From contig JANLHI010000013.1 in the NCBI GenBank assembly GCA_024654525.1, positions 82,036 through 121,123 on the forward strand: a stretch of DNA of 39,088 nt, in the 5' to 3' direction. The notes beneath the pieces are model-generated. The model saw only the letters and a program-made list of their open reading frames with translations, was not told where the DNA came from and searched no databases. Each line of letters starts with the position of its first letter. Position 1 is the stretch's first letter. The position numbers were made by a program, and so were the translations under genes. This document shows positions 2,317 to 7,694 of the stretch, piece after piece. Source of the DNA: Patescibacteria group bacterium. Its GTDB lineage: Bacteria > Patescibacteriota > Minisyncoccia > UBA6257 > 2-01-FULL-56-20.

Positions 2317-4713
2317 ATGATCAAATTAAAAATTTCTCGCGCTTTTTACCTTACGTTTGCAGTTTTTTTATTTGCATCGGTGTCTGCGACACATGTTCGC
2401 GCACAAAACACCGATCTTCAGACACAGGTTAATGAATTGAAAAGCGAAATGTTATCGCTTCACTCGATTATTAATGAGCTACAAACGGAAATACGATCTC
2501 TTATTGCGGGTACTCGAGAAACGACCTGGCGTACTTCAATAGTTACTCCTCCCACCACTCTTCAGAATACGCGAGCAGCACAAGAGTTTTTGAAAAAATA
2601 CCCAGATGTATATCCTGAAGGTTTAGTGACGGGGTATTATGGGGATTTGACGAAGGGTGCAATTAAGAAGTTCCAGGAGAAATATGGAACCGACACCGGT
2701 AATCAGGACGTTAAAAAATTCTATGATCTTGTGTTTGGGGGAGCTCCCTTCTCTTTACCGATACCGACTCCCTCCTCTCCACCGCCTTCTTTAATTACGC
2801 CAATACTTGCGAGTACTACCATTGCAACAATATCTTCACCTCCCACACCGGTTGAATGTCCGGTTACTCCAAGTGTGAGTATATGTGCAGGAGGGGAGGA
2901 TCGGGTAATGTCATTTGCTTCTGCTGCGTGTGGTACATATTACTCATGCATACCTCGCGGATCAACAATTGCAACTTCATCGTCTCCGGGGGAATTGTCT
3001 ATAACTACTTCAGGATGGCGGAGGATAACATGGGGAAGAGGAGGCTCATCGCTTGTGGCACCGCAAGTGCCTCAAGAAGTGGTTGATGCAAGGCTTCAAG
3101 AAATCGCAAGGTCATGTCCCGATGCGGTCTATTACACCTATGTAAATCCCATTGATGCTTCTCGAGCGGACGCGGGTATTGCGTCGTGCCCGACAACTTC
3201 CTCTGAAGTATCCACGCCTTCAACAGCTCTGTACGGATCTTCAACAGGGTGTGCGCGATACGGCGAAGGGTGGCGTGCGATGGATGCGAGTGGAAACTGT
3301 TTCGATACAGATATGAAAAATTATTATACTGCAGATGGATCGCTGATATCCTGTACTGCGCTCTCTGCTTCCGGGTGTAACGGCGTCACTTCATATGCGG
3401 GAGATGCCAATTCGTGTCCGGGATTTGCGTCGAGCAGATGGGATAATTCGGGAAGCCGGTATTGTGAACTAAATACCGAGCGTAAGTGTGATTACGAATA
3501 TCCCAGTTATCTTACGAATGGTTCAAACTATACAGAAAGCAATTGCCCGGAAGGCACAAGTACTGGCGTCACCTCGGTTGTCACCGGGTTTGCGCCTCGG
3601 TTTAGCGAGCCTTCCGGAGGATGTGGGCAATTTAGTCTCTATCAGTCGCGGTGGATAATACATAGTAATGCCATTGGAGGGTCGTGTGTATCGGGTGAAA
3701 GGCCTGTGAATGTGGTGAGTTCATGTCCTGCGGGGCAATGGCCGAAATGGGATTCAAGTGGATGGCCAACGGGGTGTTCGGGAGATGATTTTTCATCAAC
3801 TTCTCAAACACAAACAAGTTCCACAGGGACACAAACGAGTACGGGTACACAAACGGGATCGACATCGTCAGGAACGGGAACTTCGTATGGTTCATACAAC
3901 GGAGGATATGGAACATCTCCTGCGGGACAGAAAACCCAAGTGTGGAATTCGCTTGGGCTCCAATCATGGATTCGTACTGATGCCGATGTCTCAAGGATTG
4001 AACAGCTAAAGAGTGCATGTACCAATGTGCAGAGCGGTTCAAATATATGGTCATCGGGTGCAGGGGATTCATCAAGTGTTGATTTCGGTATGCCCGATTC
4101 GGCGAAGTGTGTCGCCGCTACGGCGTGTACGAGTGGTCAATATTATAATGGTACTTCATGCGTGAGTGGTAGCTCCGGGATTTATTATGGCGGAAGTACG
4201 ACAAGTGACACAGGAAGTATGCAAAAATGTTTCTATCCGAATGCAACAAAGAATAGCGCCGCTATTGGCTATACCGTATGGTGTGAATCGGATTATGTAA
4301 ATTGTCATGAAGGAAGCGAAAGTGGAGCCTCAATTTCTTTAGAAGGTGTTTCACTTGGTTCTCCTTCTTCATGCGAGACCGGGTGGAGCGGAGGTCCGAG
4401 CGGTTATTGTAACAGCAATAACTACTGCGACTCTTGGGAAAGTGCCACGTCATGCCCGTCAGAATGTAGCGGTTCGAGTAGTAGTGGGAGCGGTTCAGGC
4501 AATTATGGTTATTGCGAAGCATATGCGACGCAAGATACATGTACCGTACAGTCGAACTGTTACTGGCAGGCAGGAGCAGGAGGCAATTATTGTTATTACT
4601 CTTCTACACCCCCCTCATCATCGATTCCCAACGATCGCGCATCACAGTTTGGGACAATATTAGAATCAATGAGGGCAGTGATCGAAAAAATTCAAAGTGT
4701 ATTCGGACAGTAA
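2317..4713 (+). CDS. Large secreted Cys/Ser/Thr-rich protein with N-terminal coiled coil and peptidoglycan-binding-like domain
   Basis: Signal peptide (YLTFAVFLFASVSATHVRAQ), coiled coil (LQTQVNELKSEMLSLHSIINELQTEI), PG_binding_1-like AAQEFLKKYPDVYPEGLVTGYYGDLTKGAIKKFQEKYG, then a long low-complexity Cys-rich region. Confidence 0.75.
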   Translation: MIKLKISRAFYLTFAVFLFASVSATHVRAQNTDLQTQVNELKSEMLSLHSIINELQTEIRSLIAGTRETTWRTSIVTPPTTLQNTRAAQEFLKKYPDVYPEGLVTGYYGDLTKGAIKKFQEKYGTDTGNQDVKKFYDLVFGGAPFSLPIPTPSSPPPSLITPILASTTIATISSPPTPVECPVTPSVSICAGGEDRVMSFASAACGTYYSCIPRGSTIATSSSPGELSITTSGWRRITWGRGGSSLVAPQVPQEVVDARLQEIARSCPDAVYYTYVNPIDASRADAGIASCPTTSSEVSTPSTALYGSSTGCARYGEGWRAMDASGNCFDTDMKNYYTADGSLISCTALSASGCNGVTSYAGDANSCPGFASSRWDNSGSRYCELNTERKCDYEYPSYLTNGSNYTESNCPEGTSTGVTSVVTGFAPRFSEPSGGCGQFSLYQSRWIIHSNAIGGSCVSGERPVNVVSSCPAGQWPKWDSSGWPTGCSGDDFSSTSQTQTSSTGTQTSTGTQTGSTSSGTGTSYGSYNGGYGTSPAGQKTQVWNSLGLQSWIRTDADVSRIEQLKSACTNVQSGSNIWSSGAGDSSSVDFGMPDSAKCVAATACTSGQYYNGTSCVSGSSGIYYGGSTTSDTGSMQKCFYPNATKNSAAIGYTVWCESDYVNCHEGSESGASISLEGVSLGSPSSCETGWSGGPSGYCNSNNYCDSWESATSCPSECSGSSSSGSGSGNYGYCEAYATQDTCTVQSNCYWQAGAGGNYCYYSSTPPSSSIPNDRASQFGTILESMRAVIEKIQSVFGQ

Positions 4714-4745: not shown

Positions 4746-4788
4746 CTCATTTCTCCGCTATTTTTTTGATAGCGGAGTATGAGTTTTT
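4746..4788 (+). terminator. Intrinsic terminator after the large secreted protein
   Basis: CTCAT-tt-CTCCGCTAT / ATAGCGGAG-t-ATGAG stem followed by TTTTTT. Confidence 0.8.
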
Positions 4789-4946: not shown

Positions 4947-4997
4947 TTGACACACTATCGTCTACTTTGATAATATATCAATATATATTGATATATT
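4947..4997 (+). promoter_or_regulatory. Promoter plus ArsR operator-like palindrome
   Basis: TTGACA (4947-4952), 16-nt spacer, GATAAT (4969-4974); perfect 26-bp palindrome AATATATCAATATATATTGATATATT (4972-4997) overlapping the -10. Confidence 0.75.
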
Positions 4998-5000
4998 TTT

Positions 5001-5303
5001 ATGAAAATCAAACAAAAAGACACCCTCTTAAACATGTTTAAGACTCTAAGCGAAATAGCCCGCCTTGATATAGTTTTGCTCCTCACCTCGGGTGAAAAAT
5101 GCGTCTGTGAGATATTTAAAAACCTAAAACTTCCGCAAAATCTTGTTTCGCACCATTTGAGAATTTTACGACAAAGTGGCTTAATCATAAATCGCAAGCA
5201 AGGAAAATGGGTTCACTATTCTCTCAACAGAAAAAATATTAAAGAATTGCAAAAATTATTAACGAAGATCGGCACGGCTAAAGAAAAACCGCCAAAATAT
5301 TAG
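5001..5303 (+). CDS. ArsR/SmtB-family transcriptional regulator
   Basis: Winged HTH; EKCVCEIFKNLKLPQNLVSHHLRILRQSGLI with the ArsR CVC motif. Confidence 0.9.
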   Translation: MKIKQKDTLLNMFKTLSEIARLDIVLLLTSGEKCVCEIFKNLKLPQNLVSHHLRILRQSGLIINRKQGKWVHYSLNRKNIKELQKLLTKIGTAKEKPPKY

Positions 5304-5336
5304 TTGTTATTTAGTAATTACTGTAGTTCAAACACT

Positions 5337-5618
5337 ATGGCAACATATACATATATATGTTCAGGATGTGGAAATGTTTTCGACATTGAAGCAACGGTTC
5401 AAGAGAAAGAGGAGGGAAAAAGCGAAAAATTTATTTGCCCGAAATGTCAGTCGAAGGATATCAAGCAGAAATTTTCTGCCGGTAATTTTATTAAAAATGT
5501 TTTTCAGACGAATAAAAAGGGCGGTGGGTGTTGTTTCGGTGGAAATACTTGCGGGGCCGGTTGTAAGCAGGAAGAGAAAGACAAAAAGACAACCAGTAAT
5601 GGGGGCTGTTGCGGATAA
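5337..5618 (+). CDS. FmdB-type zinc-ribbon protein with Cys-rich C-terminal tail
   Basis: MATYTYICSGCGNVFDIEATVQEKE...FICPKCQSKDIKQKFSAG zinc ribbon; tail GGGCCFGGNTCGAGCKQ...GGCCG. Confidence 0.8.
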   Translation: MATYTYICSGCGNVFDIEATVQEKEEGKSEKFICPKCQSKDIKQKFSAGNFIKNVFQTNKKGGGCCFGGNTCGAGCKQEEKDKKTTSNGGCCG

Positions 5619-5633
5619 AATCCGCAAAAGTAT

Positions 5634-6593
5634 ATGATTCAACAATTCGCAGACTGGCTTATTTATTCCGTATTAAATTTTGATCCTGCCTCAAAATTAG
5701 GGAGCAGTATCAATTTTTTTGTATATGACACGGTAAAAATCTATTTGTTGATTTTAGTTATTATCGGAGTTATTGCGTTTATCCGGACATTTCTGCCACC
5801 GCATAAAATCAAAGAGCTGTTTTCAAGGCAAAGGTTTGGAATGGGAAATCTTTCGGCTTCAATACTCGGCGCGGTCACTCCTTTTTGTTCTTGCTCGTCT
5901 ATCCCCGTATTTGTGGGTCTTTTGAAAGCGGAAATGCCTTTGGGGATAGCATTCTCTTTTATCATAACTTCTCCTCTGGTTAATGAGGTTATTTTTGTTT
6001 TAATGGGAGGAACCTTTGGGTGGAAGATTGCTACCATCTACGCCTTGTTTGGAATTGCTTTGGGAGTTATCGCGGGAATGATTATCGGGAGAATGAAATT
6101 GGATAAAGAAATACTTTTGAAGTTTGATGATGCTACGGGAGAAAAGTTATCTCTTGAATATCTTCCCAAAAGTATTGAGGGTAAGATTCAATACTCGCTT
6201 CAAGAAGGTGTTGCCACCTTTAAAAAACTTTGGCTGGTTATTGCTATCGGGGTGGGAATAGGCGCCGTGATACATGGATATGTTCCGGCGGAATTTTTTG
6301 AACAATATCTCAATATTAATTCTTTGTTAGCCGTCCCCATTGCCACATTAGTGGGAATACCAATTTATGCGGGATGTTCCACCCTCGTACCGGTAGTATT
6401 CGCTTTGGTCGGACAAGGAATACCTCTCGGTACAGCTCTTGCTTTTATGATGTCCATTGCCGGACTATCTTTGCCTGAGGCGATTATGCTCAAAAAAGTA
6501 ATGACCGCCAAATTGCTCGCACTATTCTTTGGAGTGGTTGCTGTAGGAATTATTTTGATTGGTTATTTATTTAATTTTTTATTAGTGACGTAG
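5634..6593 (+). CDS. Permease, ArsP/YraQ (UPF0718-like) family
   Basis: AVTPFCSCSSIPVFVGLLKAEMPLG motif, multiple TM segments, YAGCSTLVPV. Confidence 0.85.
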   Translation: MIQQFADWLIYSVLNFDPASKLGSSINFFVYDTVKIYLLILVIIGVIAFIRTFLPPHKIKELFSRQRFGMGNLSASILGAVTPFCSCSSIPVFVGLLKAEMPLGIAFSFIITSPLVNEVIFVLMGGTFGWKIATIYALFGIALGVIAGMIIGRMKLDKEILLKFDDATGEKLSLEYLPKSIEGKIQYSLQEGVATFKKLWLVIAIGVGIGAVIHGYVPAEFFEQYLNINSLLAVPIATLVGIPIYAGCSTLVPVVFALVGQGIPLGTALAFMMSIAGLSLPEAIMLKKVMTAKLLALFFGVVAVGIILIGYLFNFLLVT

Positions 6594-6695: not shown

Positions 6696-7694
6696 TTAAA
6701 ACCAATTAAAGAGCTTCGCGAGGAAGAGAACGTACAACGAAAGATAGAACATGCCTTCCCATAAGTGTATCTGCCTTGAGATTCCGGAGATGACAAAAAG
6801 AAGCGTAGCGAAGCCCATTGCGGGGAGACCTATTAAGAATGTTTGGCTGTCCACGGGAAGTGTGCCGAGTAACCCCGGAAGGCCGATCACCACCATGCCG
6901 TTGAAGACGTTGGAACCGAAGATGTTGCCGAGCGCAACTTCAGACTTCTTCAGCAAGGCGGCTTTCGCCGAGACCAAGAGTTCCGGAAGCGATGTGCCGA
7001 CGGCGACTGCGGTGATGGCGATGACGCCGGTGCCGATATCAAGCATTGTCGAGAGATTCACCAAAGCATCAATGAGATATTTCGCGCCGATGACAAGTCC
7101 TAAGATGCCGATAATGAGCAACGCAATATCTTTGACGGTGATTTTTTGCGGGACCAATGCTTCCTGTTCGTGCGCGACGATATGCCCTTTTCGCTCCACA
7201 CGGGACGACAGGACTTCGGTAATGCCGGCCGCTTCATGGTCAATATCCTTGTGCATCACCGTGTAAAGCAGGTAGATGCCGTAGGTTACGAGAAGCAGAA
7301 TAGATTCGCCCAAAGTTACCTGCATGTCCCACGCGACGCCAAGCAGAAGCACGGTGCTGATGGAGAGGAGCGGTAAGTCGAGATCAATAAGGCTCTTTGT
7401 TACGACTAGGCGTTTACCGATGACCGCCGAGATACCTACGATAAGAAGGATGTTCGCGATATTAGAACCGACGGCATTCGCCACGACGACATCGGGAACT
7501 CCCTTAAACGCGGCGACGAACGAAGAGATGAGTTCGGGGAAAGACGTACCGACACCGACGATTGTAACGCCCACGATGAACGGCGAAAGACCCATGGCAA
7601 GGCCGATTTTTTCGGCGCTCACGATGAGCCAATCCGCTCCCTTAACGAGGAGCGCGAGAGATAAGATGAAAACGACTATCCAAAAGATGAGCAT
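6696..7694 (-). CDS. Calcium/sodium antiporter, CaCA family (YrbG-like)
   Basis: Two inverted alpha repeats: VGVGTSFPELISSFVAA...NAVGSNIANILL and VAVGTSLPELLVSAKAA...NIFGSNVFNGMVV. Confidence 0.9.
   Translation of the reverse strand: MLIFWIVVFILSLALLVKGADWLIVSAEKIGLAMGLSPFIVGVTIVGVGTSFPELISSFVAAFKGVPDVVVANAVGSNIANILLIVGISAVIGKRLVVTKSLIDLDLPLLSISTVLLLGVAWDMQVTLGESILLLVTYGIYLLYTVMHKDIDHEAAGITEVLSSRVERKGHIVAHEQEALVPQKITVKDIALLIIGILGLVIGAKYLIDALVNLSTMLDIGTGVIAITAVAVGTSLPELLVSAKAALLKKSEVALGNIFGSNVFNGMVVIGLPGLLGTLPVDSQTFLIGLPAMGFATLLFVISGISRQIHLWEGMFYLSLYVLFLAKLFNWF

What the first reader, a model, noticed from the sequence alone, without database searches (positions are those of the whole stretch)
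5001..6593. ArsR / Cys-rich zinc-ribbon / ArsP-YraQ permease cassette
Seen: three tightly spaced plus-strand genes. The middle FmdB-like protein has a canonical CxxC zinc ribbon plus an unusual tail GGGCCFGGNTCGAGC...GGCCG. Established: ArsR with CVC and ArsP/YraQ permeases are linked to arsenic, organoarsenical or metal handling. Inference: the middle protein could be a thiol chaperone delivering metal(loid) to the permease, replacing the redoxin or ArsC found in other operons. A reductase and ArsB/Acr3 are absent here.
Basis: partly seen in the sequence, partly recalled or inferred. Interest (0 to 1): 0.6.

Follow-up and report, generated by a model that had tools for sequence, protein, structure and literature searches.

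The report
Zinc-ribbon partner of an ArsP-type exporter
A tiny-genome bacterium carries a three-gene switch, small cysteine-tailed zinc protein and membrane exporter that recurs as a unit in very different bacteria; the small protein sits where related operons encode a mini-thioredoxin, so it probably hands a toxic arsenic-like or metal compound to the exporter.

Summary
In detail: arsR (5001-5303), a Cys-tailed FmdB-type zinc ribbon (5337-5618) and an ArsP_1 permease (5634-6593) form one cassette in a patescibacterial genome, with an upstream terminator, a TTGACA promoter and a perfect operator palindrome.

Of 14 loci in the permease clade (54-80% identity), 13 have the Cys-tailed FmdB 5' of the permease, one fused to ArsR. 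The clade has 99% SH-aLRT support and spans several Patescibacteria lineages plus Saganbacteria.

Widespread ArsR-Thioredoxin_3-ArsP operons have the same order and operator; FmdB occupies the thioredoxin slot, and this genome has no Thioredoxin_3. The FmdB-clade permeases carry a third membrane cysteine (C248), shared only with two sister permeases and absent from 88 others.

Corrections: Cys-rich tails are common on ordinary FmdB proteins (15 of 19), so the tail is not unusual in itself. Similar tails also occur on thioredoxins, ArsC and HgcB-type ferredoxins beside other ArsP permeases. The substrate is unproven: one cassette follows a copper ATPase.

Best reading: a soluble thiol carrier or reductant for an ArsP-type metal(loid) exporter; a new variant of a known operon type.

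The parts
4753..4777 (+). Terminator-like stem-loop with T run between the upstream gene (2317-4713) and the cassette
   Evidence: 10-pair stem with 5 GC pairs. Consensus match only.
4947..4976 (+). Sigma-70-like promoter: TTGACA at 4947-4952, GATAAT/TAATAT at 4969-4976
   Evidence: 10-11 of 12 matches; two overlapping readings. The number of promoter hits in the region is not above shuffles, but TTGACA recurs at the same place in several related loci.
4975..4994 (.). ArsR operator: perfect palindrome ATATCAATATATATTGATAT, overlapping the -10 region
   Evidence: Only perfect copy in the own genome. Consensus TAACATATCAAn6TTGATATGTTA about 17-22 nt 5' of arsR in 9 of 11 cassette loci. Also present in many ArsR-Trx-ArsP loci.
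5001..5303 (+). arsR: ArsR/SmtB metalloregulator, 100 aa, CVC at residues 34-36 (5100-5108); its only two cysteines
   Evidence: PF01022 E 4e-15; NF033788 87 bits over cut-off 55; Cys positions
5337..5618 (+). FmdB-type zinc ribbon with Cys-rich tail, 93 aa; CxxC at residues 8-11 and 34-37; disordered tail 57-93 with 6 Cys
   Evidence: TIGR02605 over cut-off. AlphaFold2: folded head (pLDDT 77-88 over residues 1-40), helix 48-55, tail pLDDT below 50. Alignment of 13 members.
5505..5615 (+). Cys/Gly-rich tail of the FmdB protein (residues 57-93)
   Evidence: Variable in sequence, 3-8 Cys in all 13 members after the conserved 'FS'
5634..6593 (+). ArsP_1 (COG0701-type) permease, 319 aa
   Evidence: PF03773 E 1e-64. 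AlphaFold2 mean pLDDT 84, pTM 0.83. The only ArsP_1 protein in the genome.
5886..5894 (+). CSC motif (C85, S86, C87) of the permease
   Evidence: C85 and C87 invariant in 47 of 47 aligned permeases. Known C(S/T)C motif of ArsP (PMC4435449).
6375..6377 (+). C248, third membrane cysteine (GIPIYAGCSTLVP)
   Evidence: Cys in all permeases of the FmdB clade and its two sisters L018/L019; A, S, T or E in 88 others

Best explanation
The cassette is an autoregulated metal(loid)-export unit. ArsR sits on the palindrome over its own promoter and is released when a thiophilic toxicant binds its CVC pair. The FmdB-Cys protein is a small soluble thiol carrier: a zinc-ribbon head with a flexible, Cys-paired tail. 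It occupies the position that a Thioredoxin_3 protein holds in sister operons, and it most likely binds the trivalent metalloid or organometal (or soft metal) through its tail and passes it to the ArsP-type permease. In this clade the permease has a third intramembrane cysteine besides the universal CSC. Shown here: gene content, conservation as a unit, slot equivalence with Thioredoxin_3, operator conservation, C248 correlation. Inferred: binding, hand-over, export and the substrate (arsenical favoured, not proven).
For: Conserved unit: 13 of 14 clade loci have FmdB-Cys directly 5' of the permease, one fused to ArsR. The clade has 99% SH-aLRT support with one loss. In 380 phylum genomes the profile's three strong hits (E 2.6e-30 or better) are all in the cassette; the next is 3e-8. 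Slot equivalence: 33 of 35 strong Thioredoxin_3 genes in the same 380 genomes lie directly 5' of an ArsP_1 permease. A same-family genome (G008, locus L194) has operator-ArsR-Trx-ArsP where the window has operator-ArsR-FmdB-ArsP. No locus in the survey has both partners and the own genome has no Thioredoxin_3. Cys-tail recurrence: 9 of 30 of those thioredoxins carry a tail with at least 3 Cys; ArsC (L054-L056) and HgcB-type ferredoxin (L024) next to the permease carry them too. Among other genes of at least 120 aa in these loci the rate is 11 of 536, and 5 of those 11 are these ArsC genes. C248 is confined to this clade and its two sisters. The NCBIfam nearest neighbours of the permease are metal/organometal exporters.
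Against: No binding or transport data exist for any member. Cys-rich tails are common on FmdB proteins beside ribosomal and other genes (15 of 19), so the tail may predate the partnership. L006 keeps ArsR and permease without FmdB, so the partner is dispensable there. L017 has FmdB next to a canonical thioredoxin and no ArsR. The FmdB association and C248 each trace to about one event on the tree, so their correlation is not many independent observations.
Confidence: 0.55

Rival explanations
1. Same architecture, different cargo: the cassette exports a soft transition metal (Cu(I), Zn/Cd, Hg) rather than an arsenical, with the FmdB tail acting as a metal chaperone or metallothionein-like buffer.
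For: L009 carries the cassette immediately downstream of an 893-aa CopA-like ATPase with heavy-metal-associated domains and a cupredoxin. The SO_0444 family, a relative of this permease, is needed for growth under Cu and Zn stress in Shewanella (PMC3219624) and is induced by Cd and Cu in Nitratiruptor (PMC10092412). CVC alone does not separate As from Cd/Pb/Cu sensors (established knowledge of ArsR/SmtB proteins).
Against: The permease is far below the SO_0444 cut-off (75 against 300 bits). Thioredoxin-type sister operons often carry ArsC. No other cassette locus that I inspected shows an adjacent Cu gene.
Confidence: 0.25
2. The FmdB protein is a regulatory partner of ArsR (a co-sensor or ligand donor) rather than a transport chaperone.
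For: FmdB is named a putative regulatory family; L013 fuses FmdB-Cys directly to ArsR; many ArsRs beside other ArsP permeases end in CC; the window's ArsR itself has only two Cys.
Against: Only one fusion in 14 loci. FmdB lies next to the permease and not always next to an ArsR: no ArsR was found beside it in L007, L014 or L017.
Confidence: 0.12
3. The FmdB protein is a thiol reductant that keeps the permease CSC and C248 cysteines, or the substrate, reduced, doing the thioredoxin's chemistry rather than carrying cargo.
For: It takes the slot of a redox-active thioredoxin-like protein, and the genome lacks Thioredoxin_3.
Against: Zinc-ribbon CxxC pairs are normally metal-locked and not redox-active (established knowledge); the tail has CC rather than the CxxC of a thioredoxin.
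Confidence: 0.15
4. Bystander: a zinc-ribbon gene of unrelated function is carried along with a mobile cassette.
For: Cys-tailed FmdB proteins are common in this phylum, and L006 lacks it.
Against: Retention in 13 of 14 loci at 54-80% permease identity, across lineages and with changing flanks, plus a distinct subfamily found only here.
Confidence: 0.08

Closest known systems
ArsR - Thioredoxin_3 (PF13192, MTH895/TM0996-like) - ArsP_1 permease operons
   Same: Same gene order, same operator palindrome, homologous permease and regulator, and often a Cys-rich C-terminal tail on the middle protein
   Different: The middle protein is a thioredoxin-fold protein, not a zinc ribbon; the permease lacks C248
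ArsP, methylarsenite / trivalent organoarsenical efflux permease (e.g. Campylobacter jejuni)
   Same: PF03773 family with the C(S/T)C motif; 'tPF-CSC' as in ArsP cluster 2 of PMC4435449
   Different: Substrate untested here; extra C248; dedicated FmdB partner; no Acr3 in the genome
SaoE (SAO organometallic system) and SO_0444 Cu/Zn efflux transporters
   Same: Related permeases (E 2e-30 and 5e-21). The review PMC13188914 lists a SO_0444-family selenoprotein with a UxC motif, and FmdB-family (TIGR02605) and PF13192 selenoproteins
   Different: Scores far below both curated cut-offs; no sao genes seen nearby
ArsD arsenic metallochaperone (with ArsA/ArsB)
   Same: Small soluble protein with vicinal Cys pairs proposed to hand As(III) to an exporter (function of ArsD from established knowledge)
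   Different: ArsD has a thioredoxin fold and serves ArsA; the FmdB protein is a zinc ribbon with no ArsD match and no ArsA beside it
FmdB-family zinc ribbon (TIGR02605, CxxC_CxxC_SSSS)
   Same: Two CxxC knuckles and a low-complexity tail
   Different: Distinct subfamily with EKEE loop, FxKNxF helix and CC-rich tail, tied to ArsP

Membership tests
ArsP_1 permease (PF03773) | Match over the curated family cut-off | tested here: met
   218.8 bits against 32.3
ArsP_1 permease (PF03773) | Conserved C(S/T)C motif | tested here: met
   C85-S86-C87; both Cys invariant in 47 of 47
ArsP (functional: MAs(III)/organoarsenical efflux) | Confers resistance to and exports trivalent organoarsenicals | not testable with these tools
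   Needs transport or resistance assays
SaoE (NF040736) | Score over the equivalog cut-off | tested here: not met
   106.1 against 325 bits
SO_0444 Cu/Zn efflux (NF033936) | Score over the equivalog cut-off | tested here: not met
   75.3 against 300 bits
FmdB family zinc ribbon (TIGR02605) | Match over the curated cut-off, two CxxC | tested here: met
   35.4 against 31.3 bits. Pfam Zn_ribbon_8 just under its cut-off, but all 13 members match it.
ArsR/SmtB metalloregulator (NF033788) | Score over cut-off and CVC metal-binding motif | tested here: met
   87 against 55 bits; C34 and C36
ArsR (arsenite-specific) | Release from DNA by As(III)/Sb(III) | not testable with these tools
   Needs DNA-binding assay
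Classical ars operon (arsRB/arsRBC/acr3) | Acr3 (SBF, PF01758) exporter present | tested here: not met
   No SBF match in the whole genome; control genomes ring
Classical ars operon (arsRB/arsRBC/acr3) | ArsB or ArsC present | not tested
   Neither lies beside the cassette; not searched genome-wide
ArsR-Thioredoxin_3-ArsP operon | Thioredoxin_3 (PF13192) protein between ArsR and permease | tested here: not met
   None in the cassette or in the genome
ArsD | ArsD domain / thioredoxin fold | tested here: not met
   Pfam scan gives only zinc-ribbon type families

The most novel reading that the evidence does not exclude
A distinct export module in which a zinc-ribbon protein with a disordered CC-rich tail acts as metallochaperone for a three-cysteine ArsP subclass. 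It would be one example of a general rule: the soluble partners of ArsP-type permeases (thioredoxin, ArsC, HgcB-like ferredoxin, FmdB) independently acquired Cys-rich tails to deliver metal(loid)s or organometals to the transporter.
Probability: 0.35. Interest if true: 0.68.

Novelty: new variant of a known kind. Interest (0 to 1): 0.52.

Why it matters
ArsP-type permeases are widespread, but how they receive their toxic cargo is unclear. This cassette shows a clean swap of the soluble partner (zinc ribbon for thioredoxin) coupled to a change in the transporter's membrane cysteines, which gives a natural experiment and a short list of residues to mutate. If the Cys-tail rule holds, it would predict metallochaperones beside many unassigned exporters, including a permease next to hgcAB in a Nitrospiraceae genome.

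Tried and rejected
Plasmid search with the FmdB protein: no match. Permease against the PDB by sequence: nothing credible. Fold search of the permease model: no match below E 0.001, so no solved relative is usable. The idea that the tail alone is diagnostic was rejected because ordinary FmdB proteins in the phylum also have Cys tails. The idea that the operator is specific to the FmdB form was rejected because the same palindrome serves Trx-type operons. Absence of Thioredoxin_3 from the three FmdB genomes among 380 is suggestive but not significant on its own (p 0.29). The 2023 and 2025 papers on SAO and Tso are not held. The distance between the CSC motif and C248 could not be measured because model coordinates are not exposed. 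Paper searches found no description of FmdB beside ArsP; that covers open-access papers only. The 'spread by recent transfer' idea was not pursued beyond noting that two same-genus genomes lack the permease.

Full report
What is there. The window lies in a 0.99-Mb genome (97% complete) of the Patescibacteria type (for size and completeness; lineage inferred from the cassette's relatives). At 5001-6593 three genes follow each other on the plus strand: an ArsR/SmtB regulator, an FmdB-type zinc ribbon and an ArsP_1 permease. A terminator-like hairpin (4753-4777) separates them from the upstream gene. A TTGACA promoter and the perfect palindrome ATATCAATATATATTGATAT (4975-4994) precede arsR. That palindrome has only one perfect copy in the genome, the next best having two mismatches. 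The FmdB start is the ATG at 5337: homologues begin there and not at the upstream TTG.

Conservation. A profile-guided scan of 84,980 species genomes returned 79 loci. With duplicates removed, 14 permeases (the window included) form one clade at 99% SH-aLRT, sharing 54-80% identity with the window's. Thirteen of them have a Cys-tailed FmdB gene directly 5' of the permease; L006 has lost it; in L013 it is fused to ArsR. The hosts are Magasanikbacteria, Moraniibacteriota, Peregrinibacteria, Nomurabacteria, other Patescibacteria and a Saganbacteria genome, with changing flanking genes. Nine of eleven arsR genes inspected carry the operator TAACATATCAAn6TTGATATGTTA about 17-22 nt upstream of the start. 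In an even sample of 380 phylum genomes the FmdB profile has three strong hits, all in cassettes, and then a gap from 3e-30 to 3e-8, so this is a separate subfamily. The cassette is sporadic: 84 of 380 phylum genomes have ArsP_1 at all, and the two same-genus genomes held do not.

The slot. In the same 380 genomes, 33 of the 35 strong Thioredoxin_3 genes lie directly 5' of an ArsP_1 permease, usually in the order ArsR - Trx - ArsP and often with the same operator. A genome of the window's own family has exactly that version (G008, locus L194). Of the 84 loci holding a permease in the broad survey (window and duplicates included), 51 have a Trx and 16 the FmdB gene, and none has both. The window's genome has no Thioredoxin_3 at all, although 13 of 14 control genomes do. 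The zinc ribbon therefore takes the thioredoxin's place.

The tail. In every member the folded zinc ribbon is followed by a Cys/Gly-rich tail with 3-8 Cys, in most after a short FxKNxF helix; AlphaFold2 predicts a folded head and a disordered tail. That needs tempering: 15 of 19 ordinary FmdB proteins in the phylum, next to ribosomal and other genes, have at least three tail cysteines. What is more specific is the vicinal CC pair (11 of 13 against 2 of 19; p 4e-5 without correction for relatedness). Similar tails recur on unrelated proteins beside ArsP permeases: 9 of 30 thioredoxins, ArsC proteins such as L054-L056 and an HgcB-type ferredoxin, L024. Among 536 other genes of at least 120 aa in these loci 11 have such an ending, and 5 of those 11 are these ArsC genes.

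The permease. The CSC motif (C85, C87) is invariant, as described for ArsP (PMC4435449). A third cysteine, C248 in GIPIYAGCSTLVP, occurs in every permease of the FmdB clade and in its two nearest sisters (L018, L019); 88 other permeases have Ala, Ser, Thr or Glu there. In the model (mean pLDDT 84) C85/C87 and C248 sit at the starts of two comparable helices, 86-98 and 248-260. That suggests, without showing it, a three-thiol site. No solved structure is related. The nearest curated families, SaoE and SO_0444, are metal or organometal exporters, but the scores are far below their cut-offs.

Mechanism. Best supported: ArsR senses a thiophilic toxicant and releases the operator; FmdB-Cys binds the species through its tail and hands it to the permease, which exports it. 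Gene linkage, slot equivalence, operator and C248 are shown; binding, hand-over, direction and substrate are inferred. Arsenical cargo is favoured by the ArsP family and by the ArsC found in sister operons. Copper or another soft metal is a live rival, because L009 has a CopA-like ATPase and a cupredoxin immediately upstream and SO_0444 acts on Cu and Zn (PMC3219624). A redox-donor or ArsR-partner role is possible.

Novelty. The operon type (ArsR - small thiol protein - ArsP) is known in outline. I found no description of a zinc-ribbon version or of the C248 subclass in the open-access library, which does not prove there is none. I rate it a new variant of a known kind.

Noticed in passing
L024:2353-4948 (Nitrospiraceae MAG CAIJNL010000048.1): An HgcB mercury-methylation ferredoxin (119 bits against cut-off 99) lies directly 5' of an ArsP_1 permease. 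The gene before it carries NVWCAAGKGTFGT, which I recognise from memory as the HgcA motif, and Thioredoxin_3 and ArsR follow: a candidate methylmercury exporter beside hgcAB.
   Followed up: partly
L075:3612-4004 and L083:3615-4004: Bacteroidota thioredoxins 5' of ArsP with an N-terminal 'KKGFWSTLFAPKK.SSCCCGS' extension, resembling the FmdB helix-plus-CC-tail (FIKNVF..KKGGGCC) on an unrelated fold.
   Followed up: partly
L054:3521-3982, L055:3524-3979, L056:3516-3977: ArsC-type arsenate reductases directly 5' of ArsP with Cys-rich C-termini (e.g. ECDGGSCCCKR).
   Followed up: partly
L018:3784-8947 (Archaeon BMS3Abin16): Sister permease with C248 but no FmdB; the ArsR-type palindrome lies at 3784-3803, and a molybdopterin oxidoreductase with its Fe-S subunit lies downstream. 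It is related to, but far below the cut-off of, ArrA/ArrB.
   Followed up: partly
window 6696-7694: Na+/Ca2+ exchanger gene with GC3 0.65 against about 0.38 for its neighbours and no close homologue in 20 relatives (best 32% identity); probably recently acquired.
   Followed up: partly
L007:2950-3160: FmdB-permease pair without arsR; a left operator half-site (ATAACATATCAATATAATT) remains, suggesting loss of arsR and the right half-site.
   Followed up: no
window 2317-4713: 798-aa Cys/Ser/Gly-rich protein with one peptidoglycan-binding domain just upstream of the cassette; function unknown.
   Followed up: no
L037:2411-3268 region (Akkermansia glycaniphila): Thioredoxin_3 domain joined to a long CC/CG-rich stretch, a membrane helix and a second thioredoxin-like domain, upstream of an ArsP permease.
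   Followed up: no
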